A stretch of 64,000 nt of DNA from Paludisphaera borealis (GTDB lineage Bacteria > Planctomycetota > Planctomycetia > Isosphaerales > Isosphaeraceae), in NCBI RefSeq assembly GCF_001956985.1, contig NZ_CP019082.1, positions 6,882,001 to 6,946,000 of the forward strand. Direction: 5' to 3'. The translations under genes and the position numbers were made by a program. This document shows, piece by piece, positions 8,058-25,851 of this stretch. Positions within the stretch are counted from its first letter, which is position 1. Each line of letters begins with the position of its first letter. The notes beneath the pieces are model-generated. The model worked only from the letters and a program-made list of their open reading frames with translations. It did no database searches and was not told the DNA's origin.

Positions 8058-9056
8058 TTACTTGTGCCCCAGCAAGTGCTTGATCAGCGAGTGCTCCTGA
8101 TGGCTATGGCCCCCCTGGGGCGAAGGGGTCGGAGCTTCCGGCGGGGCCTCCTCGCGGGCGGGCGGGGCGGGAGGGGCGGCCGGCGCGAATGGAGGCTGGA
8201 TCGGCGTCGTGCCGGTCGTGGCGATGGTGGCCGTGCCCCCCAACGGTTGAGACTGGGGCGTCTGGAGCACGGTCTCCTGGACCGTCCGCACCCGGGTCCT
8301 GCCAAGCTGGACCAGCCGCTCCCCGAACCGCGCGAGGCCGGCGCCGAGCATCCCCGGGCCGCGGACTTCGACGCTGGTCATAGAGCCCGACGTCGGAACC
8401 GAGACCGACGATCCCGCCAGGCCCACGCCCGTCCCGATCGCCGCCGGCTGCGGCGGAGCCGCCATCGGCATCGCATAGGCCGGGGCCATCGGCATCGCGT
8501 AGGCCGGAGCCATCGACGCCGCGTAAGCCGGAGCCATCGGCGCCGCCGGAGGAGCGGCCGGTGCGGAATTCGGCAGGAAGAAATTACCCTGCGGGGCCTG
8601 GGGAGGAGCCTGCTGATATTGCGGCATCATCGGCACCATCATCCCATACTGCGGACCATAGGCCGGCGCGTACGGGGCCGAATAGCCCGGCGCATAGGCC
8701 GGCGCGTAAGGCGGAGCATAAGCCGGGGCGTAGGTGGGGGGAGGTGCCGGAGCGGTCGGCGGTGCGGCGGGCGGCGGGGCCGCAGCCGGGGGGGCGTACG
8801 ACGGCAGGGGCTTCGCCGGAACCGAGTGTGACTGCTGCGACGACGGATAGCCGCCGTGGAGGCTCGAACGCCGGACTTCCGGATCGACCCGATCAGGCCT
8901 GACGACGGGCGGGGGGATGGTCGCCGAACCCGACGTCCGGCCGGGACTCGACGGCGTCGCCTGTCCGTGACAGGGGGCGATCACAGCCCACTGCGCCGCG
9001 ACCGTAACACCCAGGGCCAAGGACTGTTCGAGGATCGTTCGCTTCCGTCCATCCAT
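8058..9056 (-). CDS. Secreted Ala/Pro/Tyr-rich repeat protein (YAPAYAP)
   Basis: A 332-residue low-complexity protein. The start at 9056 is fixed by AAGGAG nine bases upstream. An N-terminal hydrophobic stretch (LALGVTVAAQWAVIAPCHGQA) is a signal peptide. Residues about 95-150 are tandem YAPAYAPPYAPAYAP-type units and about 175-210 are MAPAYAMPMAPAYA units. The segment VRGPGMLGAGLARFGERLVQLGR is a less repetitive patch that may be a folded core. The C-terminus is His-rich (GGHSHQEHSLIKHLLGHK). Such Tyr/Pro-rich proteins are known from extracellular structural material, but no function is established here. Related compositions recur at 10617-11060 and 15667-16719. Confidence 0.72.
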   Translation of the reverse strand: MDGRKRTILEQSLALGVTVAAQWAVIAPCHGQATPSSPGRTSGSATIPPPVVRPDRVDPEVRRSSLHGGYPSSQQSHSVPAKPLPSYAPPAAAPPPAAPPTAPAPPPTYAPAYAPPYAPAYAPGYSAPYAPAYGPQYGMMVPMMPQYQQAPPQAPQGNFFLPNSAPAAPPAAPMAPAYAASMAPAYAMPMAPAYAMPMAAPPQPAAIGTGVGLAGSSVSVPTSGSMTSVEVRGPGMLGAGLARFGERLVQLGRTRVRTVQETVLQTPQSQPLGGTATIATTGTTPIQPPFAPAAPPAPPAREEAPPEAPTPSPQGGHSHQEHSLIKHLLGHK

Positions 9057-9146
9057 GGGAAGGGACTCCTTCATTCTCTAGATTCGAAGCCGTTATGTGA
9101 AGCGTCCGCGAGCAACCCGGGCGGGGCGATCGGCCCGGGCTTGCGA

Positions 9147-10310
9147 TCAACGGGCCTGGGCTCGCGCCCGGAATTCGCGTGCGTAGGACGTGAAGAGCTT
9201 CTGGAGCCGTTCCTGCTGGGCCTGCCCCAACGGCTGGTTCTGGCCTTGAGGCGTGCGGATGTCCAGGCCGGTCTGGCGCATCTCGCCGATGATATGCTGG
9301 GTGAGCGGGTCGAAGACGCCTTCCGACCAGAAGCGACGCCAGTTGGGGTCCGTGGGGATGATAGCGTCGAGCCGGCGCATCAGTTCGGAACTGAGGTCGG
9401 CGAAGTTTGAATAGAGCGACGCGCGGGCCGCCACGGTGTCGAATGCGCCGGCGGCCTGCTCCAGAGTCGTCCGCCCAGCCGCGGCCCCGGGGCCCTGCAG
9501 CATCTGGTCGATGGCGGCCGTCGAGATGCCCGAGGCCGCACCACCCACCATCGCCGACGGAACCTCGCCCACGGTGACGACGACCTCGTCCATCTCCGAG
9601 ATGCTCGCCGCGCTCGCACGGGCGGAAGCGACGACGAGCCCGAAACGATACGTCCCGGCGGCCGTCGGAACGAAGGAGAAATAGGACCCGTCCTGGCTCT
9701 CTTGCTCGACCTTGGGGCCGGAGAGTTCGAGCCAGCGGTACGCGACGTTGCGAGGCGCGCTCCGCGCCGCGTTCAAGGTGATCCGACGACCGACAAGGCC
9801 GATCTGATCATCGCCCGCATCGGCCCGGGGAGCTGCGTTCGATAAGCTCGGCGGCGGCGTCGCGGCCCGCGCGACCCGCGCCTCGATCGGGATCACGACC
9901 CGGGCGGACCGTTCGCCCTGGGTGTCCCGGATCGTCAGAAGGAAACCGAGGTTCCGGGCGTCCGGCGGCACGGTCACGTGGATTTTCGGACCGGCCTGGT
10001 CATCGAGCGGCACGGTGGGACCGTCGAACTGGGTCCACTCATACGCCGCGTCCGGGTCCGCCGACCCTTCAAGCCCGATGGCGAGCCGGGCGCCCGGGGC
10101 GGGGGTGCCGACATAGCGGAGAACGCCGGGCGTCGCCGTTGCGGCGTCGATCTCAGGACGAGCGACGGCCGTGAGTTCGGGTGCCGAGGGAGGGGTTCCC
10201 TCGTCTCCCCGGGAATCCTGTTCCATCCCCATGCCGACCAGAAGAGGGAGTACATGCAGCGCTCGGAAGCGTCGGGCCGATCGGCCCGGAGTGCGGCCCA
10301 ACAAGGTCAT
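9147..10310 (-). CDS. Exported protein with two PKD/Ig-like domains
   Basis: A 387-residue protein. The start at 10310 has GAGGAAATCGCC before it, so the longer frame reaching 10445 is not used. The N-terminal segment (FRALHVLPLLVGMGMEQ) is a signal-like hydrophobic patch. Two PKD-like beta domains follow: one containing YEWTQFDGPTVPLDD near residues 75-130, and one containing DAGDDQIGLVGRRITLNA and YRWLELSGPKV near 165-255. The C-terminal 120 residues are helical (GAFDTVAARASLYSNFAD and an ending of Arg/Ala-rich helix). PKD domains mediate binding of carbohydrate or protein at the surface; the ligand is unknown. It lies between two repeat-protein genes. Confidence 0.7.
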   Translation of the reverse strand: MTLLGRTPGRSARRFRALHVLPLLVGMGMEQDSRGDEGTPPSAPELTAVARPEIDAATATPGVLRYVGTPAPGARLAIGLEGSADPDAAYEWTQFDGPTVPLDDQAGPKIHVTVPPDARNLGFLLTIRDTQGERSARVVIPIEARVARAATPPPSLSNAAPRADAGDDQIGLVGRRITLNAARSAPRNVAYRWLELSGPKVEQESQDGSYFSFVPTAAGTYRFGLVVASARASAASISEMDEVVVTVGEVPSAMVGGAASGISTAAIDQMLQGPGAAAGRTTLEQAAGAFDTVAARASLYSNFADLSSELMRRLDAIIPTDPNWRRFWSEGVFDPLTQHIIGEMRQTGLDIRTPQGQNQPLGQAQQERLQKLFTSYAREFRARAQAR

Positions 10311-10616
10311 GGCGATTTCCTCGTCAAGAACAATATCAATCGGCCGACGCCTGGGCCTTGTGCGGCCCAGCATCTTGGTAGGACTGAAAATCGACCGAAC
10401 GACCCGCAAACTTGCGACGATCCACCCGATCATCAGAAAACGCATTTCCGCCCGACCCCGAACAATCAGCGCCTTGACGAGGGAAATTCCCTTGCAGGCC
10501 CGGCGTGACGCCCCGACGTCGGGTAGATTTCCCTCCGTGGTCCCGCCGTGCGCCGGGCCTCCCCAGGGAGGGGAGGGGACCGTCGCTTTTCGCTCTCCAG
10601 ACGGAGGTTAGCCGCG

Positions 10617-11060
10617 ATGAGAGGGATTCTTCGCCCCAGGGTGGTCGCCGCCCTTTTCGGACTGGCGTTCATGGAAGTCGCGCTCGCGCCTGCCCCGTGC
10701 TTCGCCCTGGGCTTCTTCCACACGTACTACAGCAAGACGACCACTAAAACCGTCGTCCACGGGCACCCACCCGCCGCCCCAGCTCCGGATCATGCTCCGG
10801 CCTTTGCTCCGGCCTCGGCTCCGGCGGCCCCGGTGTATTACGCCCCCGCAGCTCCCATGTACTTCGCCCCGGCGGCCCCAGTGTATTACGCCCCCGCGGC
10901 TCCCATGTACTACGCCCCGCCAGCCGCCCCCAGCTTCGCTCCGCCGCTCGCGCCCAGCTATGCCCCGCCGCCTGCACCCAACTATGCTCCGCCGCTTGCA
11001 CCCAACTATGCTCCGCCGGCTCCTGCCGCTCCGTCAGCCCAGGCATCCGGCCAGCGCTGA
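10617..11060 (+). CDS. Secreted Ala/Pro/Tyr repeat protein (YYAPAAP)
   Basis: A 147-residue protein. ATG 10617 is preceded by ACGGAGG at good spacing. Residues 1-30 form a signal peptide (VAALFGLAFMEVALAPAPCFA). After GFFHTYYSKTTTKTVVHGH, residues about 58-140 are tandem units of the type VYYAPAAPMYFAPAAP and then NYAPPLAPNYAPP. A strong intrinsic terminator at 11095-11132 ends the transcript. The same repeat style as at 8058-9056; probably a structural or surface-exposed peptide, function unknown. Confidence 0.75.
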   Translation: MRGILRPRVVAALFGLAFMEVALAPAPCFALGFFHTYYSKTTTKTVVHGHPPAAPAPDHAPAFAPASAPAAPVYYAPAAPMYFAPAAPVYYAPAAPMYYAPPAAPSFAPPLAPSYAPPPAPNYAPPLAPNYAPPAPAAPSAQASGQR

Positions 11061-11094
11061 GGGCAGCTCGTTTTTTGCAGGAAGAACCACGAAG

Positions 11095-11132
11095 GCGCGT
11101 CGAGGGAGGATTCCCACGACGCGCTTTTTTTT
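11095..11132 (+). terminator. Rho-independent terminator
   Basis: An 8-bp perfect stem, GCGCGTCG (11095-11102) with CGACGCGC (11117-11124), a 14-base loop, and a run of eight T (11125-11132). It sits 35 bases after the stop of the YYAPAAP gene. Confidence 0.88.
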
Positions 11133-11440
11133 CGACTCCGATGAACTCGCCCGCGCGGTCACACGCCGCGTTCACTTGGTCCAGCATCTCAAGCGTCGGG
11201 TCCAGTCGACTGATCCTCGACCGGCCCGCTCGCCTGGATTTCCACTCCTCTCGAAGATCCCGCAGCCACCGCACCTTTCCACGCCGTCGTTTTCGACACG
11301 TTCGCTTCGTCTCAAAGCGCGTCTTTTTTTCCGTTGATCGATCATCTCTGCTCGTGTTTAATTTAGATATAGCAAGCGTCTGCCGTGGCCTGATGGGAGA
11401 TTAACATCTGTCCTTTAGGGTCGGAAACGGGGGGAGACAA
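11133..11440. other. Intergenic region ahead of the caspase-like gene
   Basis: About 300 bases after the terminator without a credible gene. It holds a promoter candidate at 11334-11362 and a ribosome-binding site (GGGGGGAG) just before ATG 11441. The 11300-11400 stretch is notably AT-richer than its surroundings. Confidence 0.5.
11334..11362 (+). promoter_or_regulatory. Candidate sigma-70 promoter for the caspase-like gene
   Basis: TTGATC (11334-11339) and TTTAAT (11357-11362) with a 17-base spacer, in a locally AT-rich patch. The expected transcript start near 11369 leaves a leader of about 70 bases. Confidence 0.5.
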
Positions 11441-14074
11441 ATGGCAAACTATGCGGTCGTCATTGGAATCAAAGACTATGACTCTATTCGAAGCCTTCAG
11501 ACGCCGGTAGACGACGCATTGCGGATAACGAACTGGCTACTCGCTCCGGACGGGGGCGGCGTCTCGGTGGACAATCTCCAATTGCTCCTGAACCCCATCC
11601 CGGCGTCACTCGATGCGAATCTGGCCGCCCTGAAAGCCCGGGGCAACCTGAAGCCCGCCACTCGCGATCAGATCCTAACGACCTTCATTAATTTGGCCGA
11701 AGGGGCGTTGGCGGGCGGAGAGCGGTTGTTCTTCTTTTACATGGGGCACGGCCTCATGAGCCGAATCTCGTTCACCAGCGAGGACGCGATCGTGCCGTCC
11801 GACTTCCTGGACGGCGTGCGGAAGGCGATCAGCATCAGTTCGATCCTGCGTTTCTTTCAGGCGATCCCGTTCCCCGAGCAGTTTTGCGTCTTGGACTGCT
11901 GCAGGAACATGTCGATCTCCGAGATGGATCTGGACCGGGCGCCACCGAGGATGCCCGACCCGACGAGGCCGGCCCCGGATCAATTCGTATTCTACGCCAC
12001 GGGGCCCGGGCTAGTGGCCCTCGACGCTCGGGGGATGTTGACCGACAACCTTTTGGACGGGCTCAAGGGCGCGGGACGGGCCAAGTCTTGGTCGCGCCAG
12101 CAGAAGCGGTACGAGGTGTCGACGGCCCGGCTGTTCGACTACATCACGTCGCGGTTCCAAGCGCTGCAACCGGTCGTGCCCGGCGCGGCGGGGGGCGCTC
12201 AGAATCAAATTCCGCGGCTTGGGGGCGAGCACTCCCAAGATCGGACGTTGGCGACCCTGCCCGAATCAGCCGTTTCTCCCGTGAGCCTTAACATCAACCT
12301 GAGCCCGCAGCAGGCAAACTCCGCCATCGACCTGCTGCTCATGGGCGACCGGGTCAACAAGCGGGTTCCGGGGACGCAAGCTCTACTCCCCATCCCGCTG
12401 AAGCCTCGGATCTACACGCTGACGGTGGAGTCCACCCCGCAGTGGGACCCGGGCGACGGGACCTGGGAGTTAGAGGTCTACGAGGACATGGCGTTTCCGG
12501 TCTCAATGACGTTGGCGGCGACGCCCCAATCCCCGGCGCCACCGCCGCCCATTCCGACGCCTACTCCTGCCGACCCCGCGCCGGCGCCACCGCCGCCCAT
12601 CCCGACGCCGACGCCTGCCGAAGCGATTACGACGCACGCCGCGGCGATGCCGACACATGCCGCGGCAGCGCCGGCGACGCCCACCCCGACGCCGACGGAA
12701 GCCTCGACGGGTGAACTGGCCATCATGGCCGAGGACCCGTTGGCCGCCCTGGCGCTCTTCGAGGAGGACGGCACGCCGGTGATGTACGGCGACCGCCCAT
12801 GCCGCGGAAATGGGAGCCTGAAAGTCCCCAACCTCCCCGTCGGGGTTTACCTAGCGACCATGAAGACCCCGGAAGGGCCGGTCGCGAAGCGTCTCGTCCG
12901 CGTGGAGAAAGGAAAGTCGACCACGATCACGATCCAGCCGCCCGAGACCGCGGTCGGCGGATTGATCCGGCGCGTGATCGATCGCGTCGGCTTCGACGTC
13001 AACAAAGATGGAGTCGTGGACCTCTCCGCTCGGGTCAAATCGGTGGCGGCCCCGGCGATCTCCACGGTGCTGGAATTGTCCCGGTGCGCGACGAAGTACA
13101 ACCAGAAATGGCGAGATGCCGGGAACAGGCTCCGCGACGTCCTGAACCCCTCATCCCAGCGAGACACAACGACCCACGGGCATGAGGCGAGGTCGGGCGA
13201 GGATTTCCAAGTCATGATCGCCGCCGAGGTCATGCCGCGCCCTCTGGAGGAAACGCTGGAGAAGCTTCGGGCGCTGGGACAAGTCCTCCTCGTAACGCAG
13301 GACGAGGTCGACTCCTACCTCCGGCTGTTACGATGGCAGTACTGGCCGATGGATGCGGCGCCGAAGGAAAGTCGGCCCCTGGAGCCGTCGGCCACCCCCG
13401 GCGTGGCGATCGCGGCGACGCCGACGACGCCCGGGTCGTACTGGTTCAGGGTCGACTCGAAGGATCGCCGTCGCAACGTCTGCTTCGCGCTGACCATCCT
13501 GCCGGGCTACGACCTGAACCTCATTTTCCACCAGGTGGAGAGCGGCCGGATCTTCGTCTCCCAGTTCATGGAGGCCGACCGACCCGGTCAAGACGCCAAT
13601 CCACTGAAGACGCGCCGACTTGACATGGCCCAACGGTTCCTGATGAGGGGGGACCTGGGTCAGGGATCGTCCACGCTCGAACCACTGCTCGACGACGCGG
13701 ATGAGCTGAACCCGATCGCCGGGAGCCTCGGGGGTCACGTGCTGGTGAAGCAAGGGCGGATCGATCGCGCCGGGGCGATCGGCGAGCGCCTCGTCCAACT
13801 CCATCCCACGCTTCCCGACGGGTACGTTCTTAGCGCACTGGATCTGTCGACGAAGGGCCGGGAGCGCGAGAGCGCGGAGGCGTATCGCAAGGCGATGGAT
13901 CTCGGGTTCCCGGTGGTCGCGGAAAATACGATGCGCCTCGGTTTCGGAGTCGCTCAAATGCGCATCGAGCATCCTCGGGCCGAACTGTTGAACCGCGTGG
14001 TCGGGAGGCTCCATCCCGGGTTGCTCTGGACCGCCTGGATGGCGGATCCGGATTGGCCCAAGAGGGCGACCTGA
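11441..14074 (+). CDS. Caspase-family (peptidase C14) multidomain protein
   Basis: An 877-residue protein. Residues 1-260 are a caspase-fold cysteine peptidase: the first strand YAVVIGIKDYDS, the catalytic His in FYMGHG (His103), and the catalytic Cys in VLDCCRN (Cys154). A Pro-rich linker (PPPPIPTPTPADPAPAPPPP, about 365-420) joins a beta domain. Residues about 518-530 contain DVNKDGVVDL, an EF-hand/dockerin-like calcium loop. The C-terminal part (about 710-870) is helical, with TPR-like units. No signal peptide is visible, so it is probably cytoplasmic. Bacterial C14 proteins act in regulated proteolysis and in some defence systems; the role here is unknown. A metalloprotease gene follows 180 bases on. 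Confidence 0.85.
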   Translation: MANYAVVIGIKDYDSIRSLQTPVDDALRITNWLLAPDGGGVSVDNLQLLLNPIPASLDANLAALKARGNLKPATRDQILTTFINLAEGALAGGERLFFFYMGHGLMSRISFTSEDAIVPSDFLDGVRKAISISSILRFFQAIPFPEQFCVLDCCRNMSISEMDLDRAPPRMPDPTRPAPDQFVFYATGPGLVALDARGMLTDNLLDGLKGAGRAKSWSRQQKRYEVSTARLFDYITSRFQALQPVVPGAAGGAQNQIPRLGGEHSQDRTLATLPESAVSPVSLNINLSPQQANSAIDLLLMGDRVNKRVPGTQALLPIPLKPRIYTLTVESTPQWDPGDGTWELEVYEDMAFPVSMTLAATPQSPAPPPPIPTPTPADPAPAPPPPIPTPTPAEAITTHAAAMPTHAAAAPATPTPTPTEASTGELAIMAEDPLAALALFEEDGTPVMYGDRPCRGNGSLKVPNLPVGVYLATMKTPEGPVAKRLVRVEKGKSTTITIQPPETAVGGLIRRVIDRVGFDVNKDGVVDLSARVKSVAAPAISTVLELSRCATKYNQKWRDAGNRLRDVLNPSSQRDTTTHGHEARSGEDFQVMIAAEVMPRPLEETLEKLRALGQVLLVTQDEVDSYLRLLRWQYWPMDAAPKESRPLEPSATPGVAIAATPTTPGSYWFRVDSKDRRRNVCFALTILPGYDLNLIFHQVESGRIFVSQFMEADRPGQDANPLKTRRLDMAQRFLMRGDLGQGSSTLEPLLDDADELNPIAGSLGGHVLVKQGRIDRAGAIGERLVQLHPTLPDGYVLSALDLSTKGRERESAEAYRKAMDLGFPVVAENTMRLGFGVAQMRIEHPRAELLNRVVGRLHPGLLWTAWMADPDWPKRAT

Positions 14075-14254
14075 GCCTCTGAGACAGGTTGCAACGGTCC
14101 TCGACGACAATCCGCCGTCCCTCGGAAGTGCACGGCCTTTTCCGCTTGTTCATGATATCGTTGAATGAGATCACGACACTTCGGATTCCTTCCGCTCACT
14201 GAGCGGCTGTAAACCATCCCTCCGCGTCATCAACAACTCGAGGAGATCCGCACC

Positions 14255-15436
14255 ATGGCCGACCAAGATCCCTTGCCCATCGACGCCTCGAAATTCCAGC
14301 GGGCGGCCGACTCGCCGTCGCCGGACGACGTCCCGACGCCCGGGCTGTGCGGGAACCAGCCGAACGGCGGCCCCTACGTCCCCAGCAAGCCTGAGACCGC
14401 CGCCACGTCGACGAGGGCGGTCATCGACATGGACCGCCGATGGAAAAACGGCACCCGGCTCCAGGTCGTTTTTTTGACCGGGGACGACGCCTGGGGCCAG
14501 GCGATCCGTCAAGCGGTCAGGAGAATCGCGGTCCAATGGAGCGACTATGCGAACATCACCTTCGATTTCGACCAGCCGGCGGCGCACATCACGGTGAACC
14601 TCGTCCCTGGGAGCATCCCCCAGCTCGGATGGTCGGTCAACTGGGGGAGCTATAACTGCTTCATGGGAACCGATTGCTTGAACATGCGCAAGCAATTCCC
14701 CTCCCTGCCGTCGATGAATCTGGTGTTCCCGCCCAACCTCCAAAACGATCCCAACTTGATGGATGCCGAGTTCAGCCGCGTGATTCTGCACGAATTCGGT
14801 CACGCGCTGGGACTCATTCACGAGCATCAACGACCTGACAGGCCGATCGATTGGACCCCTGACGTCTTCTCGTACTACGGCGCGCCCCCTAACAATTGGT
14901 CTCAGCAAATGGTTCAGGAGCAGATCATCAACGCCGTGCAAGGCGGCACGCTGATGGGGGGGGCGTTCGACATCAACTCGATCATGATGTACCAATATCC
15001 GCAGGGACTGGCGGCTTATAAGGACGGCACCCCTTTCGTCTCACCCAACAACGTCATCCTCACGCCGCTCGACAAGGTCGTCGTGGCCATGGCCTATCCC
15101 GTCGAAGGAGCCCCCGCCTCGAACGAGCAGACGCTCGTCCCCGGCGAGGCTGCGCGACCCGGCAAGATCGATGTCGCCGGCCGCGTGGGCCGCTACAAGT
15201 TCCAACCTCAGACCGAGGGGGTCTATACGATCGCGACCACGGGAATGCCCGCACTCGTCGCCTTATTAGGCAAACGAGACGATCCGGCAGGTCGGATGCT
15301 GGCCGCTGAGGGAGCGAACGCGAAACTCACGTTCCGGCCCAAGAACGTGGGCCAGGACTATTTCGTTCAGGTCCGTCATGCGCGGCCGACAAAGGGCACT
15401 GGCGATTTCCAGATCGCCGTGACACAGGTTTCCTGA
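14255..15436 (+). CDS. Astacin-like zinc metalloprotease
   Basis: A 393-residue metzincin. The zinc-binding motif HEFGHALGLIHEH spans residues 179-191 (His179, His183, His189; Glu180 catalytic), followed by a Met-turn SIMMYQY around Met244-245. The N-terminal 50 residues carry a lone Cys in GLCGNQPNG, which could act as a propeptide switch; that is inference. The last ~100 residues (from about Gly310) resemble a PPC-type beta domain (YTIATTGMPALVALLG ... YFVQVRHA). No classical signal peptide is seen, so secretion would need another route. GAGGAG precedes ATG 14255. Next to the caspase-like gene and in the same direction. Confidence 0.86.
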   Translation: MADQDPLPIDASKFQRAADSPSPDDVPTPGLCGNQPNGGPYVPSKPETAATSTRAVIDMDRRWKNGTRLQVVFLTGDDAWGQAIRQAVRRIAVQWSDYANITFDFDQPAAHITVNLVPGSIPQLGWSVNWGSYNCFMGTDCLNMRKQFPSLPSMNLVFPPNLQNDPNLMDAEFSRVILHEFGHALGLIHEHQRPDRPIDWTPDVFSYYGAPPNNWSQQMVQEQIINAVQGGTLMGGAFDINSIMMYQYPQGLAAYKDGTPFVSPNNVILTPLDKVVVAMAYPVEGAPASNEQTLVPGEAARPGKIDVAGRVGRYKFQPQTEGVYTIATTGMPALVALLGKRDDPAGRMLAAEGANAKLTFRPKNVGQDYFVQVRHARPTKGTGDFQIAVTQVS

Positions 15437-15467
15437 AGCGAGCTTCGCCGGTTCGGCGGAATCGGCG

Positions 15468-15506
15468 TCTCGCCTGCGCTCGCCACGGCTGAGGCGAGAG
15501 CTTTTT
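15468..15506 (+). terminator. Probable intrinsic terminator after the metalloprotease
   Basis: TCTCGCC (15468-15474) pairs with GGCGAGA (15493-15499), and GC then TTTTT follows. The 7-bp stem with an 18-base loop is less tight than ideal. Confidence 0.5.
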
Positions 15507-15666
15507 CCGAGATTCATGAAGGATTTTCCTTGGATCGACTTACAATATGGGATAATTGGAGAACCCAGTCAATCCAAGGCGTATTTTCCGGTTGCCGACG
15601 ACGGCTTCAGGATTTCGGGCATCACGAAAACTGTAAGTGGTTGAGATCACACCCTGGAGGTCCAAC

Positions 15667-16719
15667 GTGAGACGCGTTTCGTTCTCGCTACTGATTCCGG
15701 CCGCACTCGGGTTCGTCCTCGCCGGCTCTGGCGACGTGAGGGCGAATTGCCTGCATGGCCTGCTGCGATGCGGGGCGTGCGGTGGAAGTTACGGCTATAG
15801 CGTCACCAGACCCCCGGCACCTGCGCCCCAGCCTGGCCCGACCAATCCGGGCGGCGGCGCGCCCCCTATCCCGGAAGCGGCCCCGAGCCTGCCCTATCCG
15901 GGCGCAGCCCTGGACCAGCCGGCTTCAGGCGCAGCCGCTTATGCTCGCGCCCCCTACGCCTACGGTGCCGCTCCGGCCGCGCCTTACTCCTACGCCTACG
16001 GTGCCGCCGCTCCGGCCGCGCCTTATGCCTACGGTGCTGCTCCGGCGGCACCTTACTCGTATGCCTACGGAGCCGCCGCTCCTGCGGCGCCTTATTCCTA
16101 CCCTTACGGAGCCGCTCCGGCGGCGCCTTACTCCTACCCCTACGGCGCCGCCGCCCCGAGGGCTGCTGGCTCGTCCCTCCTTGAGGGGTACAGTGCTGCT
16201 GCTCCCATAATGCCGGTCCCGGCGTGGACGCCCCTCGCGAACGGACAACTGGTCGGCTCGCACATCTTCCAGGTTCTCGGCCGGTTCGGAAAGGGTCTCA
16301 GTCAGTCGGGCCTGCTCGATCTGGCGGTCAGAGGCTTTTTCGACGTGAGCGGAGTCATGCCGACGACGCACGAGCGTCAGATCCTGGAAAACATCGTCGC
16401 GCGATTCCTCCAGGGAGGCGATCAGGGGGGGGCCGAGCCTGGAGGGCAGGTCGGGAACGGCGGTAATGGAGCGAACGGCGGTAATGGAGCAAACGGCAAC
16501 ACAAGAATCATCCGGATTATTGTGACGGTCGAGGTGCCTCCAGGCGCAGAGGTTGTGGACGTCAAGACCCAAAAGCAGGCTCAACCTGGGAAGGAAGCGG
16601 GCGCGGACGAACAGGCCGGCCCGATGCCAAAGATCCCCTCGATGGCCCCGGCGGCCGAGCCTCAGTCGCCGAAGCCCTCCTCACCGAGCATCCCCGCCCT
16701 TGCTCCCAAGGCGGAATAA
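15667..16719 (+). CDS. Secreted Ala/Pro/Tyr/Gly repeat protein (YSYAYGAAAPAAP)
   Basis: A 350-residue protein. GTG 15667 is chosen because GGAGG lies 6 bases upstream and the resulting N-terminus (RRVSFSLLIPAALGFVLAGSGDVRA) is a clean signal peptide. A short Cys cluster follows (NCLHGLLRCGACGG). Residues about 90-165 are tandem APYSYAYGAAAP units of about 12-13 residues. The C-terminal half has a less repetitive segment (SHIFQVLGRFGKGLSQSGLLDL), a Gly/Asn run (NGGNGANGGNGANGN), a beta-like TRIIRIIVTVEVPPG stretch and a Pro-rich end. The mid segment echoes the LARFGERLVQLGR patch of the 8058-9056 protein, so the two may be distant paralogues. Confidence 0.75.
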   Translation: MRRVSFSLLIPAALGFVLAGSGDVRANCLHGLLRCGACGGSYGYSVTRPPAPAPQPGPTNPGGGAPPIPEAAPSLPYPGAALDQPASGAAAYARAPYAYGAAPAAPYSYAYGAAAPAAPYAYGAAPAAPYSYAYGAAAPAAPYSYPYGAAPAAPYSYPYGAAAPRAAGSSLLEGYSAAAPIMPVPAWTPLANGQLVGSHIFQVLGRFGKGLSQSGLLDLAVRGFFDVSGVMPTTHERQILENIVARFLQGGDQGGAEPGGQVGNGGNGANGGNGANGNTRIIRIIVTVEVPPGAEVVDVKTQKQAQPGKEAGADEQAGPMPKIPSMAPAAEPQSPKPSSPSIPALAPKAE

Positions 16720-16741
16720 ACCCCCGAGGGTTGGAGTTGCG

Positions 16742-16776
16742 CGATCGAGGCGGCGAAATCGCTTCGGCCTCGATCG
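16742..16776. terminator. Hairpin between convergent genes (bidirectional terminator candidate)
   Basis: A perfect 10-bp stem, CGATCGAGGC (16742-16751) with GCCTCGATCG (16767-16776), and a 15-base loop. It lies between the stops of two convergent genes. No T-run follows in either direction, so Rho-independent action is unproven. Confidence 0.45.
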
Positions 16777-16808
16777 TGCTCGCCCCTAGCTCCGGAAGGC
16801 CTGTCCAA

Positions 16809-18329
16809 TCACTGACGATTGAACAGACGCGTGAAGCCGCCTCGTCGGGGCGGTCCGGCCGTCGCGGCGGCTCGGCCAAGGGCCAGCCGTCGCGAGGTGG
16901 TCTCGGTCGAGGCGACCGGGAGGAGTTGCGGCGGCGCGGCGGCGTAATGGGACGGGTCGCCACCGTTGGCGAGGTCGAGCGCCCGGACGTTGGCCTCCGT
17001 CACGTAGGGGTTGTGCCCCACCCAGCGCGTGCTCTCGACCACCATCAGGTTCAGGGGGGCGAACAGGGCGTCGCCGTCCACCGAGATCCAGTCGCAGGCG
17101 TCCGTCCGCGACGAGTCGACTCGCCCGTCCCGGCCGTAGGCCAGGGTGTAGGCGTAGCGAATCAACCGGGAGTGTTCATCCTGGTTATTGAGGCTCGATC
17201 CCGAGTTGGCCTCAATCTCGACGTCCACGCGGACCGTGAGCACGTCTCGCTCTTGGACCGCCCGATAATGGGCCGTGTACCCGCCGACACCGTGGTTCCA
17301 GACCTCGTCGGTCGTCCCCCGCGGCGGGAAGCCGCGAAGGTTCCCCAGCAGGGCGACGCCCCGACCTAGCAACTGTTCTTCCAGCAGTCGATGGAACGCG
17401 ACGACGGATCGGTCGCAAGGGTCGGGACCGGGGACCGGCGGACCGGCGGCGATGTCGACCACGTGATCGCCGATCCGGTGGTTCAGGTGGTTCTCGCCCA
17501 GTTCCGCCCAGAGAGCCTTCAGTTCGTCCCGCGTCAGACCGGAGCCGGGGGAGGGGACCGGCTCGTTCAGCAGGATCGACGCCACGGCCCCGCCCAAGCA
17601 GTGGCCGGGCCAGCGCGATACGTTGTGGTTCTGGCTGTTCCCCGCCTCCCACGACCGGGCGGAGGAGCGGTAGAGCAGGTCGTACTTGAGCAGCGGGCAC
17701 GGGGTCTCGTGCACCGTCCCGTCGGCGGCCTGGAACGTGACGTCGTCGTAAAGGTTCGGGAACCAGGTCGAGTCGTCGCCGGCGGCCACCGGCGTCTCCA
17801 GCAGCCCGTTCGGCCCGGCGCGGACGATGTCCTGCCCTGGCGCGATCGGGGCTCCGGGCGTGGCGACCAGGACGTCGTCGCCGAAGACCTGCACCGTGTC
17901 CACGCGGCCGTTGCCGTCCGCCCAGGGTTCATGGATCGCATCGGACTTGGTCGGCCAGTAGTAGTAGTTCCAGGGCTTGCGCGCGCTCCGTCCGACTTGG
18001 ACGAACGAGGTGGCGACGGAGAAGGGCGAAGTCGCCCCCTCGATCGCGAACGTGTACCAGCCCGGAACGCCAGGCGCAAGATCCTGCCCGTTGGGCCGCT
18101 GCCGTCCATCGGGCCCCTCGATCGGGCCGACCGTCCCGGAGGTCGTCTCCACGGTCAGAACGCCACCGAACTGCGTCGGAATATAAACACCGAAATGCCG
18201 ATCCCGCCCCTCGACGGACCACGTCCCGCCGAGCGGCAGCGGCCGCATGCGCGTCGGATCATCCGCCGACGCGCCCGCCGGCGTGCTCGCGGCGGCCAGC
18301 ACCACCCAAATCGCGATCGCTCGACGCAT
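16809..18329 (-). CDS. Secreted protein with GHC...WNH motifs, possible transglutaminase-elicitor-like cysteine enzyme
   Basis: A 506-residue protein with a clear start (18329; AAGGAGGGCGG just upstream) and signal peptide (AIWVVLAAASTPAGASA). After a beta-rich N-terminal region (about 25-120, resembling a pre-domain of secreted proteins) comes the motif SRWPGHCLGGAVAS with Cys244, and later EVWNHGVGGYTAHY with His346. A Cys motif followed about 100 residues on by a VWN-H/Y motif resembles the transglutaminase-elicitor family (papain-like fold). The call is tentative: the Cys and His are visible, catalysis is not demonstrated. The C-terminal 50 residues look disordered and basic. Confidence 0.6.
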   Translation of the reverse strand: MRRAIAIWVVLAAASTPAGASADDPTRMRPLPLGGTWSVEGRDRHFGVYIPTQFGGVLTVETTSGTVGPIEGPDGRQRPNGQDLAPGVPGWYTFAIEGATSPFSVATSFVQVGRSARKPWNYYYWPTKSDAIHEPWADGNGRVDTVQVFGDDVLVATPGAPIAPGQDIVRAGPNGLLETPVAAGDDSTWFPNLYDDVTFQAADGTVHETPCPLLKYDLLYRSSARSWEAGNSQNHNVSRWPGHCLGGAVASILLNEPVPSPGSGLTRDELKALWAELGENHLNHRIGDHVVDIAAGPPVPGPDPCDRSVVAFHRLLEEQLLGRGVALLGNLRGFPPRGTTDEVWNHGVGGYTAHYRAVQERDVLTVRVDVEIEANSGSSLNNQDEHSRLIRYAYTLAYGRDGRVDSSRTDACDWISVDGDALFAPLNLMVVESTRWVGHNPYVTEANVRALDLANGGDPSHYAAAPPQLLPVASTETTSRRLALGRAAATAGPPRRGGFTRLFNRQ

Positions 18330-19465: not shown

Positions 19466-22210
19466 ATGAGAACACCGCGCGCAGCGGTTGGTCGAACGCG
19501 ACTCTTCCAAAGCACCGCGGCGGCGAGGCGACGGCGGTGGCGGCCGACGGCCGAGCTGCTGGAGGACCGCCTGGCGCCGGCGACGGGAGCTTGGTCGGCC
19601 CTGGGAGCGGCCGCGCCGGGCCTGCTGAACGGCCAGTCGACCACCGATTCGTACTTCCGGCAGACCACGCTGATGACGCCGGGCCCGGCGGCCGGCGCCA
19701 TGTTCGGCTCGTCGGTCTCGATGACGGCCGACGGCGGCACGGTTGCGATCGGGGCCCCTCATCTGAGCAGCGGGCAGCCCGGCGTCGAGCCCGGAACGGT
19801 CACCCTTTTCACGCGGACCGACCGGGTCTGGACCTCGATCGCCACGTTCTCATCCCCCGCGGGCGACCACAGCTTCGGCGACGCGGTCGCCTTGAGCGCC
19901 GACGGCGACACACTGGCGGTCGGCGCGCAGGCGGGGGACGTCCAGCACGGCGCGGCTTCGCTTTACATCTACACGCGATCGGGAACGGCCTGGACCTTGA
20001 GCCAGTATGTGAACATGGCCGACGGCGGCGGGTTCGGCGCCAGTCTGGCGATCAGCGACGACGGGTCCGTCATCGTGGCCGGCGCCGCGTACACCAACGT
20101 CGGCGCCCATTCGGCGCAAGGGACGGTCTACGTCTTCACGCGGGCCGACGGCGTTTACACCCAGGGGCCGGCGATCGTCGCCGCCGACGGCGCGACGAAC
20201 GACCTCTTCGGCAAGTCGATCGCGCTGAGCGGCGACGGGAGCACGCTGGCGGTCAGCGCGCCGGCCGCGCAGGTCGTCGGTCCCAGCGTGGGCGCCGTTT
20301 ACGTTTACGACCACTCGGGCGCGGATTGGACGTTCGCGACCAGGCTGGAGCCTGCGCCGTCGTCGACCCTCGGTGGGCCGGTCGCGATCGACGGCGACGG
20401 CTCCACGCTCGTGATCGCGGGGGCGACGACGTTCATCAACGGCGGCCCCGTGAATTCCGCTCGCGTCTTCACCAAGTCGGGCGCGGACTGGACCCCGTCC
20501 GCCGACCTGACCGCCTCCGATCCAAGCGTGAGCAAGTCGTTCGGCTCGTCGGTCGCGGTCAGCGCCGACGGAGTCACGGCGGTCGTCGGGGCGAGCTATT
20601 CCACCTCTTCCCAGACTCAGTATCCGGGGGCCGCGTACGTTTTCAGTCTCTCGGGATCGACCTGGACCCAGACCGACAAGCTGTCCGCGAATACGGCTGG
20701 AACGGCCTTCGACCACTTCGGCACGGTGACGGCGATTCGCGGTCGGACCATCGTCGTCGCCGCCCCCTCGGCCGCGATCGGTTTTCGCGCATTGCAGGGC
20801 TCCGCTTACGTCTTCTACAGTCCCCAGGGGTTCGAGGTCGCGCTCGATCCGATCAGCCAGACGGGGTACGTGGGGATGACGACGACGTTCTCGTCAACCG
20901 TGGCGGATGGCACGGGCGTCACGGTCCAATGGCAGGTCAGCACCGACGCCGGCGCAACCTGGACGGACATCGCGGGGGCGTCGAACGGGTGGTACTCGCT
21001 CGTTCCCGCCCTGACCGACTCGGGCAACCAGTATCGCGCCCGGTTCACCGACGCCGCCAGCGACACGATCCTCACCCACCCCGCGACGCTCACCGTCGTC
21101 GGCACGGGAACGACCACCACGCTGACATCGAACCTGAACCCGTCGAGGGGGGGCGATGCGGTGACGTTCACCATCACCGTCACCGACGAGACCGGGATCA
21201 CCCATCCGCCCAACGGCGTGGTGGATCTCTACATCGGCGGGGTGTGGTGCCTGGCGACGTCGGTCGACCTCTACGGCCAGGTGTGGCTCACGACCACGGT
21301 GCTGTATCCGGGGACTTACACGCTGCTCGCCAAATATCGAGGGTGGGACCAGCTCCAGGCGAGCGAGTCGACGGCGCTCTTCCAGGTCGTCCAGCCGGGC
21401 GTGGCGGTGACGAGGTCCACGTTGACGTCGAGCCTGACCCCCTCGACGGTCGGCGACTCGGTGACGTTCACCGTGACGATGGCCAACCTGAGTGGGCCGA
21501 CCTATCCGTGGGCGGGGAGCGTCGACTTCTACGTCGGCGACCAGTGGGTCGCGACGCGGCCGGTCGACGCCGACGGCAAGGCGAAACTCACCACGTCGGC
21601 CCTGGTCCCGGGGACTTACACCCTGACCGCCAAGTATCTGGGGGCGCACGACTTCCAGCCGAGCCAGACGTTCGAGCCGTTCTACCAAATCGTCATGCAT
21701 GTCAAGGCGCCGACGATGACCACGTTGACGTCGAACCCGAACCCGTCAGCGTCCCATGGCTCCGTGACGTTCACCGCGAAGGTCACCGACGCGAGCGGCG
21801 CAACCCCCGTGACCACGGGAGGCGTGGATTGGTACATCGGCGGGGTCCTGGTCTTATCGATGGGGCTCGACGGCACGGGGACCGCGTCCTTCACCACGCA
21901 GTCCCTGGTGCCGGGCTACTACACCCTGACCGCCAAGTATCTGGGGGCGGATTTCTTCCAGGCGAGCCCGTCGGCCCCTTATCTCCAGATCGTCAACGCA
22001 ACGCCCGCTCCGTCCGCGGCGACCGCCTCGGCGGCCCTGATGGCGCAACCGAGTTCGACGGCCCTTGTGGCGCAAGCCGGCCCGACGCCCCTGGCGTCCC
22101 GGCAATGGAAGCTTCAAGCGATGCGGGCGCAGATCGTCGCCGCCCGCGCCGAGCGACTGGCGACCCGCGCCATCCCCCAGCGGTTGGCCACGGCTCACCG
22201 CGGACGCTGA
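19466..22210 (+). CDS. Giant FG-GAP/Ig-like surface protein A
   Basis: A 914-residue protein. ATG 19466 aligns with the start of paralogue B. The N-terminus is Arg-rich and carries the planctomycete signature AELLEDRLAPATG (residues about 29-41) instead of an ordinary signal peptide. Residues about 65-450 are six or seven FG-GAP-type propeller repeats (FGSSVSMTADGGTVAIGAP; GASLAISDDGSVIVAGAA), then an Ig-like domain (WQVSTDAGATWTDIAG) and three Big_3-type Ig domains (each TTLTSNLNPS ... VDFYVGDQW ... PGTYTLTAKY). The C-terminus is the conserved basic tail AARAERLATRAIPQRLATAH. Probable surface adhesin or matrix protein; ligand unknown. Confidence 0.85.
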   Translation: MRTPRAAVGRTRLFQSTAAARRRRWRPTAELLEDRLAPATGAWSALGAAAPGLLNGQSTTDSYFRQTTLMTPGPAAGAMFGSSVSMTADGGTVAIGAPHLSSGQPGVEPGTVTLFTRTDRVWTSIATFSSPAGDHSFGDAVALSADGDTLAVGAQAGDVQHGAASLYIYTRSGTAWTLSQYVNMADGGGFGASLAISDDGSVIVAGAAYTNVGAHSAQGTVYVFTRADGVYTQGPAIVAADGATNDLFGKSIALSGDGSTLAVSAPAAQVVGPSVGAVYVYDHSGADWTFATRLEPAPSSTLGGPVAIDGDGSTLVIAGATTFINGGPVNSARVFTKSGADWTPSADLTASDPSVSKSFGSSVAVSADGVTAVVGASYSTSSQTQYPGAAYVFSLSGSTWTQTDKLSANTAGTAFDHFGTVTAIRGRTIVVAAPSAAIGFRALQGSAYVFYSPQGFEVALDPISQTGYVGMTTTFSSTVADGTGVTVQWQVSTDAGATWTDIAGASNGWYSLVPALTDSGNQYRARFTDAASDTILTHPATLTVVGTGTTTTLTSNLNPSRGGDAVTFTITVTDETGITHPPNGVVDLYIGGVWCLATSVDLYGQVWLTTTVLYPGTYTLLAKYRGWDQLQASESTALFQVVQPGVAVTRSTLTSSLTPSTVGDSVTFTVTMANLSGPTYPWAGSVDFYVGDQWVATRPVDADGKAKLTTSALVPGTYTLTAKYLGAHDFQPSQTFEPFYQIVMHVKAPTMTTLTSNPNPSASHGSVTFTAKVTDASGATPVTTGGVDWYIGGVLVLSMGLDGTGTASFTTQSLVPGYYTLTAKYLGADFFQASPSAPYLQIVNATPAPSAATASAALMAQPSSTALVAQAGPTPLASRQWKLQAMRAQIVAARAERLATRAIPQRLATAHRGR

Positions 22211-22501
22211 GCCTTGAGACGACGGGAGGGACGCGACGGCGGCGAAGGCCGCGGCGTCCCTCCTCCTGGCGGCCAGAGCCATCGCCGATGGCGTGGCGAA
22301 GAGGCGACGGATTATTAAAAACCGCACATGTTCGATTGCGATCATGCACAAACAAGGGCGAGTGGTGTACTCTTCCCTGAATAACGGCCCGGGCGCGACG
22401 GCTCAACCGAAACGTGCATTGCTCCGGTCGTCCGAGCCCCTCGTTCCCGACGATCCAACCCGAAGTCGGGCGCACATTCGAGTTCGATTGAGAACGACAC
22501 C
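22211..22501. other. Duplicated leader between FG-GAP paralogues A and B
   Basis: About 290 bases. A hairpin-poor tail of gene A, then from 22301 the leader elements shared with gene A (GAGGCGACG, TTAAAA, CGCACATGTT, CGACGATCC, GTCGGGCG). The duplication therefore included upstream control sequence as well as the coding part. Confidence 0.55.
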
Positions 22502-25500: not shown

Positions 25501-25810
25501 AGCCCTGGTGCCGGGTGACTACACGCTGATCGCCGTTTATCGGGGGACGGAGGACGCTTTGGGGAGTGTGTCGAACAGCCTGTTTCAGACCGTCGGCGCA
25601 CAGGCCACGGCGACGGCTTCGATTGCTTCTGCGGCGCGATCGTCCCTCCCCAGTCCAGAAGCCCCCGTAGTCCAGCCCGTTTCGACGGCCCCGGCGGCCC
25701 GGCCGTCCCGGTTCCAGGCGATGCGCGCGAACATCGTCGCCGCCCGCGCGGAGCGATTGGCGACGCGCGTCATCCCCCAGCGGTTGACCACGGCCCACCG
25801 CTGGAGGTGA
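22502..25810 (+). CDS. Giant FG-GAP/Ig-like surface protein B
   Basis: A 1102-residue paralogue of protein A. The N-terminus MKTLRASFGRTGLFQ and AELLEDRLAPATG match A closely. Residues about 55-430 are FG-GAP-type propeller repeats (FGIGVAISADGTTLAVGS and others), then an Ig-like domain (WQVSTDGGSNWSNIVG), two further Ig domains (ITITPSVNPRKIGD; an ATTATAGQSVTLTG unit with VLFTDNGQPIGFG), and three Big_3-type domains ending VPGDYTLIAVYRG. The C-terminal tail RFQAMRANIVAARAERLATR matches A. Protein B has two Ig domains that A lacks, so domain gain or loss followed the duplication. Confidence 0.85.
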   Translation: MKTLRASFGRTGLFQGHGATKRRRLRPTAELLEDRLAPATGGFSALGAGTQSLSTNSYIQQAKLTSSTPGGELNFGWGISLTADGETLVVGTPGGGPDSVPGSVVVYTRSDRVWTEVARLTSPAGAASSDDFGIGVAISADGTTLAVGSKSGLFEHGPAALYVYARSGSEWDLTQTVTLADSNGFGAWLSISDDGGVIAGGAAYADSVRGAAYVFSRTDGVYIQEPPVVAPNGEANDFFGTSIALSGDGRTLAAGSLESNHDYAGSGAVYIYEKSGLDWTFVTRLSVPRASSLSGKVALNGDGSVLLAGGSSPEAEAGIASVIRVYIKSDSSWTQSSKLTGFDVPASYSYGEWVALSSDGATALVGSPFARISGADDQGAAYLFTLEDSTWTQVARLTAFDGAASDNFGTQIAIRGRTIVVAAPRATIGSHRGQGAVYVFDEPQGFAVTVDPVSQTGYPTTTTTFTAAATGAATLSTQWQVSTDGGSNWSNIVGATSQWYAFAPALINSGNQYRAVFTNEANETVTTNPATLTVVKATPVITITPSVNPRKIGDGLSFQIDVGSNIPAARTPNGGVVSLTIGSFHVSATLENSRQTFSIPTTLAPGVYTVTATYDGALDPVFGSAVATTTQIIVRASSSIEGQVSATTATAGQSVTLTGVVTATGGVNPPTGRVLFTDNGQPIGFGALSPSDMPGVSITVFTTGPLTTGEHYFQMVYQGDSETFASASGVYRVDVSAPLYTATTTTLASSRSPFTTGGAVTFTATVVDASGPGHPTSGPVDFYVGGVLVASTPLDADGEAKLTTTALVPGVYTLIARYRGWDHIQPSESDSLYQFVSPAVVTTTRLISTLNPSMVGESVTFFAAVTDVSGLFRLWPGDIDFYVGDQLIATSPVYPSGQAAFTTSALVPGWYTLTARYRGTEDFRSSQSLPLSQTVNQTTTTLTSSQNPLKAGDEVTFTATVADASGAGRPTSGEVDFYIGGVLVATSSLDADGNATLATTALVPGDYTLIAVYRGTEDALGSVSNSLFQTVGAQATATASIASAARSSLPSPEAPVVQPVSTAPAARPSRFQAMRANIVAARAERLATRVIPQRLTTAHRWR

Positions 25811-25818
25811 GCGGCTTT

Positions 25819-25851
25819 GAGGGGCGTGGCGGCTCGGCTGCTACGCCCCTC
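25819..25851. terminator. Hairpin between convergent genes
   Basis: GAGGGGCGT (25819-25827) pairs perfectly with ACGCCCCTC (25843-25851) around a 15-base loop. It lies between gene B and the convergent DMFase-like gene, and overlaps the last codons of the latter. A likely bidirectional terminator, without a strong T-run. Confidence 0.5.

What the first reader, a model, noticed from the sequence alone, without database searches (positions are those of the whole stretch)
8058..18329. Accessory island pairing low-complexity A/P/Y-repeat secreted proteins with a caspase-like protein and a metalloprotease
Three secreted proteins built of Ala/Pro/Tyr repeats (8058-9056, 10617-11060, 15667-16719) surround a PKD-like secreted protein, a C14 caspase-like protein, an astacin-like metalloprotease and a secreted GHC/WNH protein. 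Repeat proteins of this kind could be structural matrix or cross-linkable (Tyr-rich) substrates; proteases and a possible transglutaminase-like enzyme next to them suggest a processing or cross-linking system. Composition and order are seen directly; the joint function is inference. I know of no described system with this set.
Basis: partly seen in the sequence, partly recalled or inferred. Interest (0 to 1): 0.72.

Follow-up and report, generated by a model that had tools for sequence, protein, structure and literature searches.

The report
Caspase paired with latent astacin protease
A planctomycete carries a caspase gene next to a metal-dependent protease that looks locked by its own front end, a pair that recurs in distant bacteria and probably works as a two-step proteolytic switch like known bacterial cell-suicide systems; here it sits inside an older cluster of secreted repeat proteins.

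Summary
All seven ORFs exist, but as three things, not one island. (1) The GHC protein is family-wide (37 of 37 genomes) and was not found linked to the rest elsewhere; transglutaminase kinship is unsupported. (2) APY_A-PKD-APY_B-APY_C is a secreted-protein cassette; three genus mates carry it as one block with their own secreted astacin. (3) Caspase plus astacin is a two-gene unit, here between APY_B and APY_C, adjacent and co-oriented at 9 loci in 7 genomes (Planctomycetota, one Myxococcota). Relatives of this caspase instead sit beside bacterial gasdermin, trypsin or an alpha/beta-hydrolase. [quoted passage not shown] all 9 partner astacins keep a prosegment cysteine and a basic residue at the mature N-terminus, but some caspase-free astacins do too. 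The caspase folds like MALT1, which cuts after Arg. Best reading: the triggered caspase cuts the astacin after Arg54 and unleashes it, a protease-activates-protease variant of the gasdermin/Canu kind. The pairing is shown; activation and immune role are inferred. Metalloproteases also recur beside the PKD gene (8 of 21 loci), so an envelope role stays open.

The parts
11441..14074 (+). Caspase (C14, 877 aa): caspase domain about 1-273, beta-rich regions, Pro-rich linker about 376-420, C-terminal beta domain and TPR-like helices. No leader seen.
   Evidence: PADLOC caspase PDLC02987 3e-27; AF2 pLDDT 81.6; MALT1 3uo8 Z 22.4, 20% id over residues 2-273
11747..11749 (+). Catalytic His103 codon (GHG motif)
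   Evidence: invariant in 18 of 18 rows of A4
11894..11902 (+). D152-C153-C154: catalytic Cys154 and the Asp two residues before it (place of MALT1 Asp462)
   Evidence: D152 and C154 invariant in 18 of 18 rows; MALT1 S1 residues from PMC4357240 passages
14255..15436 (+). Pro-astacin (M12A, 393 aa): prosegment 1-54, catalytic domain about 55-283, C-terminal beta-sandwich about 285-392. No leader seen.
   Evidence: PF01400 4.7e-7; AF2 pLDDT 85.2; myroilysin 5zjk Z 26.1, 34% id, model 55-283
14348..14350 (+). Cys32 codon, candidate cysteine switch in the prosegment
   Evidence: Cys in the prosegment of 9 of 9 caspase-linked astacins; residues 29-35 are the one stretch of 1-54 outside the segments that AF2 lists under pLDDT 50
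14414..14416 (+). Arg54 codon, predicted activation site (mature chain would start at Ala55)
   Evidence: mature myroilysin 5zjk aligns from model residue 55; Arg or Lys at this place in 9 of 9 caspase-linked astacins
14789..14827 (+). Zinc motif HEFGHALGLIHEH (residues 179-191)
8058..9056 (-). APY_A, Ala/Pro/Tyr-rich secreted-type protein with a conserved segment (within residues 206-290); part of the PKD cassette
   Evidence: segment found again in L077, L082, L083, L084, L203, L206, of 20 PKD loci searched
9147..10310 (-). PKD protein; part of the PKD cassette
   Evidence: PF22352 1.1e-11; homologues in 18 of 59 genomes
10617..11060 (+). APY_B, short Ala/Pro/Tyr-repeat protein, divergent from PKD
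   Evidence: N-terminal segment found in L082, L083, L084 at the same place, of 20 PKD loci searched
15667..16719 (+). APY_C, Ala/Pro/Tyr-repeat protein; follows APY_B directly in three genus mates
   Evidence: segment E 1e-48 to 7e-53 in L082, L083, L084, of 20 PKD loci searched; spacers 197-215 bp there

Best explanation
The core is a two-gene proteolytic switch: a MALT1-like caspase with beta-sandwich and TPR-type parts, and a latent myroilysin-like astacin. A signal sensed by the caspase's C-terminal domains makes the caspase active. It cuts the astacin after Arg54, which frees the catalytic domain from the prosegment whose Cys32 blocks the zinc. The freed metalloprotease then degrades cell proteins, as an executioner in cell suicide or growth arrest, most likely against phage. 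It is the same plan as gasdermin-caspase and Canu (caspase-nuclease) loci with a different effector. In this genome the pair sits inside an older secreted-protein cassette (APY_A-PKD-APY_B-APY_C). Shown: the conserved pairing, intact catalytic motifs in both, the prosegment Cys and the basic residue, and kinship of the caspase with gasdermin-linked caspases. Inferred: activation, its direction, the trigger, and the immune role.
For: Pairing: adjacent, same strand, gaps 13-180 bp, at 9 loci in 7 genomes: window, G004, G009 (three), G002, G033, G474 and the Myxococcota contig L164. Single-sequence searches of 59 genomes first showed it: 8 have a caspase match and 5 of these have the astacin match beside it. 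Profile scans agree but are partly circular, since the profiles hold pair members: 10 places exceed 190 bits for the astacin, 8 with the caspase next door; of the 4 not in the profile, 2 (G009:C409, G474) have it and 2 (G091, G009:C118) do not. Of 397 class genomes, 5 hold the full-length caspase (over 300 bits): 4 beside astacin, 1 (G228) beside gasdermin. Swappable partner: the upstream gene is bGSDM in L126 (1.8e-72), L133 (1e-78) and L128 (4e-74), trypsin in L129 (2e-16), DUF900 hydrolase in L134 (5e-7). Latency: model residues 55-283 lie on mature myroilysin 38-241, Z 26.1; [quoted passage not shown] Cys in 9 of 9 prosegments. Specificity: Asp152 invariant, Asp25 nearly so in 18 caspases; MALT1's P1-Arg pocket uses Asp365, Asp462, Glu500 (PMC4357240 passages). 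Leaders agree within the pair at 8 of 9 loci: RRx[F/V]L type on both in 3, on neither in 5.
Against: The basic residue and the Cys also occur together in five caspase-free astacins (L192, L095, L080, L081, L193), and myroilysin itself has Arg there, so they are not specific to a caspase partner. One pair (G009:C409) has a Sec-like leader on the astacin only. Gene order differs between loci. Astacin is the partner at only 3 of the 41 caspase loci, two of them already in the profile. The window's surroundings (dnaJ, rnpA, tRNA-Ser, secreted proteins) are no defence island; only G004 was seen with defence-type neighbours (C5 methyltransferase, HNH, Phd/PIN), and I did no enrichment test. In G009 (two pairs) and G002 both proteins look exported, which does not fit a cytosolic abortive system. 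Metazoan caspases and metacaspases score within about 1-1.5 Z of MALT1. No coordinates were available, so Cys-zinc geometry was not measured.
Confidence: 0.5

Rival explanations
1. Envelope-protein processing: the astacin (switched on by the caspase) matures or remodels the secreted PKD and APY proteins of the cassette. The caspase is a regulator of surface assembly, not of cell death.
For: M12A proteases of different subtypes lie in the fetched stretch around the PKD gene at 8 of 21 PKD loci (window and 7 of 20 others), against about 1% assumed by chance per locus. Three genus mates carry a secreted-type astacin in the same cassette (PF01400 3.4e-27 in G003 and 6.1e-25 in G001; G002 by profile). 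G009 has caspase-astacin pairs on both sides of PKD-APY_A, and there both enzymes carry Tat-like leaders.
Against: In G004, G002, G033, G474 and L164 no PKD or APY segment is found in the 15-20 kb around the pair. In the window the enzymes have no leader while PKD/APY look exported. The caspase's relatives sit with gasdermin, trypsin and a hydrolase, not with surface proteins.
Confidence: 0.25
2. Two unrelated modules that share an address by chance or because the site tolerates insertions: a caspase-astacin unit landed between APY_B and APY_C, and nothing links them. (This can be true together with the best explanation.)
For: In G001, G002, G003 the APY_B to APY_C spacer is 197-215 bp, against 4.6 kb in the window, and the end of window APY_B with about 70 bp after it, and the region around the APY_C start, match those loci (blastn 6e-8, 1e-7). 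The pair lies elsewhere in G004 and G002. The pair has slightly lower GC (0.651, 0.621) than the cassette genes (0.67-0.72), though other window genes reach 0.657.
Against: Co-location again in G009, a different genus (chance at most about 4.5% by a rough estimate). No terminal repeats seen at the edges.
Confidence: 0.4
3. The cascade runs the other way: the astacin is the upstream protease and processes the caspase.
For: The caspase has a long Pro-rich, low-confidence linker (376-420) that a broad protease could cut.
Against: The astacin carries the latency features (prosegment Cys). PMC4357240 (passages) says MALT1 needs no such cleavage. In relatives the caspase is constant and the partner changes.
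Confidence: 0.1

Closest known systems
Bacterial gasdermin (bGSDM) loci
   Same: Related caspase: PADLOC 'caspase' PDLC02987 at 3e-27 (that this model belongs to the bGSDM system is my recall, its number is next to bGSDM PDLC02986). In L126, L128 and L133 this caspase type is directly downstream of bGSDM.
   Different: The neighbour here is a metalloprotease with zymogen features, not a pore-forming gasdermin.
Canu (caspase-nuclease) systems, PMC12799240
   Same: A MALT1-like caspase with Ig-like and TPR parts beside a latent enzyme that the caspase activates (passages read).
   Different: The effector is an astacin, not a gated nuclease. I made no direct sequence comparison with CanA.
Myroilysin (M12A, cysteine switch)
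   Same: Catalytic domain Z 26.1 and 34% identity; mature chain starts at the matching place; a prosegment with Cys.
   Different: Myroilysin is secreted and has, as far as I know (recall), no caspase partner. Here there is an extra C-terminal beta domain and no leader.
EACC1-caspase and other conflict systems of Kaur 2020 (PMC7159879)
   Same: Caspase at the N-terminus of a multi-domain protein; weak hit to NF047832 (3.4e-6). The passages also mention a metallopeptidase domain on rare occasions among effector domains of vWA ternary systems, so a metallopeptidase effector as such is not new.
   Different: Score 26.7 against a cut-off of 140; the upstream gene is a repeat protein; no vWA, MoxR or VMAP partner seen.
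MALT1 paracaspase
   Same: Fold match Z 22.4 over residues 2-273; DxCR motif; acidic residue two before the Cys.
   Different: 20% identity; other C14 enzymes score nearly as high.

Membership tests
M12A astacin family | Pfam PF01400 above its gathering score | tested here: met
   30.1 bits against 22.5
M12A astacin family | HExxHxxGxxHE zinc motif and SxMxY Met-turn | tested here: met
   HEFGHALGLIHEH and SIMMY
Cysteine-switch astacin (myroilysin type) | Cys in the prosegment that binds the catalytic zinc | tested here: inconclusive
   Cys32 present, and a Cys present in 9 of 9 caspase-linked astacins; zinc binding not measured, no coordinates available
Caspase family C14 | caspase fold with His-Cys dyad | tested here: met
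   H103 and C154 invariant in 18 rows, also kept in G474; fold match Z about 20-22 to C14 enzymes
Paracaspase/metacaspase subfamily C14B | acidic S1 pocket and basic P1 preference | tested here: inconclusive
   D152 and D25 conserved; Glu500 place not assigned; specificity itself not testable here
bGSDM system | matches PADLOC's caspase model | tested here: met
   PDLC02987 3e-27
bGSDM system | gasdermin gene next to the caspase | tested here: not met
   astacin and PKD protein and APY_A, APY_B, APY_C, GHC give 0 PADLOC families
Canu | gated nuclease CanC beside the caspase | tested here: not met
   no nuclease domain among the seven ORFs scanned
Canu | Ig-like fold after the caspase domain | tested here: inconclusive
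   beta-rich segments at 281-355 and 423-498 in the model; weak PEGA hit only in relative L126
EACC1-associated caspase (NF047832) | score above the curated cut-off | tested here: not met
   26.7 against 140 bits
Transglutaminase elicitor (PF16683), for the GHC protein | score above the gathering score | tested here: not met
   13.4 against 25 bits; 5 of 12 family members match at E up to 1, best 0.034

The most novel reading that the evidence does not exclude
A bacterial initiator-executioner protease cascade: a MALT1-like caspase releases a cysteine-switched astacin. It has spread across Planctomycetota and into Myxococcota, with versions in which both enzymes switched together to Tat-type export, so a folded caspase cascade would run outside the cytoplasm, coupled to a secreted PKD/APY surface cassette that itself recurrently recruits astacins.
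Probability: 0.3. Interest if true: 0.78.

Novelty: new variant of a known kind. Interest (0 to 1): 0.6.

Why it matters
In the caspase systems I read about, the caspase releases a pore (gasdermin) or a nuclease (Canu). A caspase that switches on a second, broad-acting protease would be a close bacterial parallel to animal initiator-executioner cascades, and would give a use for bacterial cysteine-switch astacins. It makes a prediction testable with two purified proteins. The PKD-APY cassette with its recurrent astacins looks like a separate surface module of Isosphaeraceae; I did not search the literature for it.

Tried and rejected
Seven genes as one system: rejected, because GHC is not linked to the rest elsewhere. 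In all 17 other genomes that have a PKD homologue, GHC lies on another contig or more than 0.5 Mb away (in draft assemblies another contig is no proof of distance). GHC as transglutaminase: below every cut-off; a profile search of solved structures gave one chance-level hit (E 0.7). Papain-like kinship was tested only through Pfam.

EACC1 membership: below cut-off. Mobile carrier: no terminal repeats; one weak caspase hit in plasmids (the phage collection was not searched); 11 astacin loci in viral contigs, and no caspase match among the called genes (L218 and L221 gave no called astacin gene). Basic P1 residue as proof of a caspase partner: dropped, since caspase-free astacins share it. Strict leader co-switching: weakened by G009:C409. 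Match of the prosegment alone to solved structures: none. G063 has an astacin and a caspase-like gene about 5 kb apart; not counted. G700, G498 and G488 astacins have no caspase gene alongside.

Literature: nine searches; none of the listed rows was about a caspase-astacin pair, but several lists were cut (for example 15 of 1,365). The library lacks most subscription papers, among them Johnson 2022, Wein 2025 and Xu 2017, whose contents I know by recall or through other papers. PMC3501461 was read in passages: no 'astacin' in its text. PMC8195603 and PMC7159879 were read in passages: each has the word 'astacin' once, in PMC7159879 within a reference; the one in PMC8195603 I did not see. PMC12799240, PMC9848320 and PMC4357240: passages only. 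PMC3500650 and PMC6207715: start of abstract in a listing.

Limits: gene calls in other genomes come from my own codon-usage script; leaders were judged by motif, hydropathy and eye; hydrolase partners in Bacteroidota loci beyond L134 were judged by eye. The class scan for the caspase scored only the top two candidates per genome. The chance figures are rough and ignore shared ancestry (G001-G003 and G013/G030 are not independent).


Full report
WHAT IS THERE. All seven ORFs are present at the stated places, and the repeat arrays are real. Composition: A+P+Y 42% in APY_A, 59% in APY_B, 40% in APY_C; Tyr 4.2%, 8.2% and 6.0%. The window is part of contig C1 of a 7.65-Mb genome. G004, a genus mate, has a contig of the same length as MKTT01000074.1 (Planctomycetales bacterium 71-10), and G009 one of the same length as JAJPJC010000027.1 (Isosphaeraceae bacterium Centralia_MAG_412), so I take family f1 to be Isosphaeraceae.

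THREE THINGS, NOT ONE. GHC: a match in all 37 family-f1 genomes searched (36 relatives plus own; in G029 only a fragment) and in none of the 22 from other families. In all 17 other genomes with a PKD homologue it lies on another contig or more than 0.5 Mb away. The window's genome has a 56% paralogue at C1:3115531. GHC is left out of the system.

PKD cassette: a PKD homologue in 18 of 59 genomes, 21 loci, the 20 others fetched. A gene with 26-44% A+P+Y follows PKD on the same strand at 19 of 21 loci (read by eye; L202 does not show it and L210 is too short to tell); detectable kinship with APY_A was shown only for six of the 20 (L077, L082, L083, L084, L203, L206). In genus mates G001, G002 and G003 the order is APY_A(-) PKD(-) APY_B(+) APY_C(+) astacin(-), one block (G003 read on the other strand). 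Their astacins are 605-823 aa with a leader-like N-terminus and an A/P-rich tail (PF01400 3.4e-27 in G003, 6.1e-25 in G001; G002 by profile, its 823-aa tail looks like an over-long reading). The flanking genes differ from the window's, so the block sits at another chromosomal place. The window has the same order with caspase and astacin between APY_B and APY_C, and no long astacin follows APY_C.

CASPASE-ASTACIN PAIR. Nine loci: window; G004:C74; G009:C162 (two pairs); G009:C409; G002:C1 2.72 Mb; G033:C121; G474:C135 (another family of the phylum, outside the class); L164 (contig JAGDMS010000123.1, titled Deltaproteobacteria, Myxococcota in the tree output). All are same-strand with gaps of 13 to 180 bp. 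Two forms exist: fused (caspase plus beta/TPR parts in one protein, astacin with a C-terminal domain; window, G004, G002, G009:C162) and split (astacin, caspase of 349-375 aa, then a 546-582-aa protein; G033, G009:C409, G474, L164). The astacin tree pairs G009a with G002 and G033 with G009c firmly, and has window and G004 as nearest neighbours, but several forks are open.

HOW SPECIFIC IS THE PAIRING. Single-sequence searches of 59 genomes: 8 with a caspase match, 5 of them with an astacin match beside it (own, G002, G004, G009, G033); G008, G029 and G034, with weak caspase matches, have no astacin match. For the astacin, 10 places exceed 190 bits in the class and phylum scans, 8 with the caspase adjacent; six of the ten are in the profile itself, and of the other four two have it. 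So the pairing is strong for this astacin subtype, not absolute.

SWAPPABLE PARTNER. In the 41 loci found across genomes, the gene next to the relative is bGSDM in L126, L128 and L133; a trypsin in L129; an unknown 231-246-aa protein in L130 and L132 (L132 also has a CHAT protein downstream); a DUF900 alpha/beta-hydrolase in L134 with look-alikes by eye in 14 further Bacteroidota loci; astacin in 3 (L127, L131, L164). The remaining loci show other or no clear partners. A constant caspase with a changing effector is the pattern of gasdermin and Canu loci.

LATENCY AND ACTIVATION. The astacin model (pLDDT 85) matches mature myroilysin with Z 26.1, rmsd 1.8, 202 residues, 34% identity, model residues 55-283 on chain 38-241; the two other myroilysin entries follow at Z about 17.5-18 and animal astacins at about 15-16. 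Residues 1-54 are predicted disordered except 29-35, around Cys32. All nine caspase-linked astacins have a Cys before the catalytic domain, and in the split form W8, C9 and R24 are invariant in 4 of 4. At the mature start all nine have Arg or Lys. Five caspase-free relatives share both features, so these mark the astacin subtype, not the caspase link. The caspase model (pLDDT 81.6) matches MALT1 best (Z 22.4), with metacaspases and caspases at about 21. MALT1's arginine pocket uses Asp365, Asp462 and Glu500; Asp152 is two residues before the catalytic Cys, as Asp462 is, and Asp25 lies in helix 1, as Asp365 does; I did not place Glu500.

LEADERS. RRx[F/V]L-type N-termini with a hydrophobic stretch stand on both proteins in G009:C162 (both pairs) and G002, on neither in window, G004, G033, G474 and L164, and G009:C409 has a Sec-like leader on the astacin only: 8 of 9 agree.

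LINK BETWEEN THE MODULES. Pairs lie within 10 kb of PKD in window and G009:C162 (3 of 9 pairs, 2 of 7 genomes); around the six other pairs no PKD or APY segment is found. In G004 and G002 both modules exist but apart. A rough upper bound for the G009 coincidence is 4.5%. Separately, an M12A protease lies in the fetched stretch around PKD at 8 of 21 loci (plus window); rough chance 5e-11 if loci were independent and 1.5e-6 for five independent cases. So a protease link to the PKD cassette is well supported; a caspase link is only suggestive.

VERDICT. A caspase-effector module with an astacin as effector is the best reading (0.5 for the full mechanism; I would put about 0.85 on the two genes acting together). 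Novelty: new variant of a known kind. The nine literature searches listed no description of a caspase-astacin pair, within a library that lacks many key papers; metallopeptidase effector domains as such are mentioned for other conflict systems (PMC7159879 passages).

Noticed in passing
16809-18329: GHC protein: homologue, mostly 54-63% identical, in 37 of 37 Isosphaeraceae genomes searched (G029 a fragment), absent from 22 genomes of other families; strongly conserved motifs (GHC, ENHxNH, VWN), function unknown. Own genome has a paralogue at C1:3115531.
   Followed up: partly
19466-32049: Large neighbouring ORFs at 19466, 22574 and 28009; the first two share an N-terminal motif LLEDRLAPATG, and the third carries a 174-bp repeat.
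   Followed up: no
L082, L083, L084: Secreted-type astacins with long Ala/Pro-rich tails inside the APY-PKD cassette of genus mates; the G002 copy reads into an unlikely tail, possibly a frameshift or wrong reading.
   Followed up: partly
L213 5959-6669, L217 3888-4772: Viral contigs carry small astacin-like genes, in L213 and L217 right after short ORFs that look membrane-bound by eye, perhaps lysis genes.
   Followed up: no
L076 5453-13385: In G004 the caspase-astacin pair lies among a C5 cytosine methyltransferase, an HNH endonuclease and a Phd/PIN toxin-antitoxin pair.
   Followed up: partly
L077 17600-18721: G009 has a stand-alone copy of the caspase's C-terminal beta/TPR part with its own Tat-like N-terminus, next to the second pair.
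   Followed up: no
L130 3154-3894, L132 9277-9972: An unknown 231-246-aa protein just upstream of related caspases in an Acidobacteria MAG and Variovorax; a candidate further caspase-controlled effector (no good Pfam hit, none in PADLOC).
   Followed up: no
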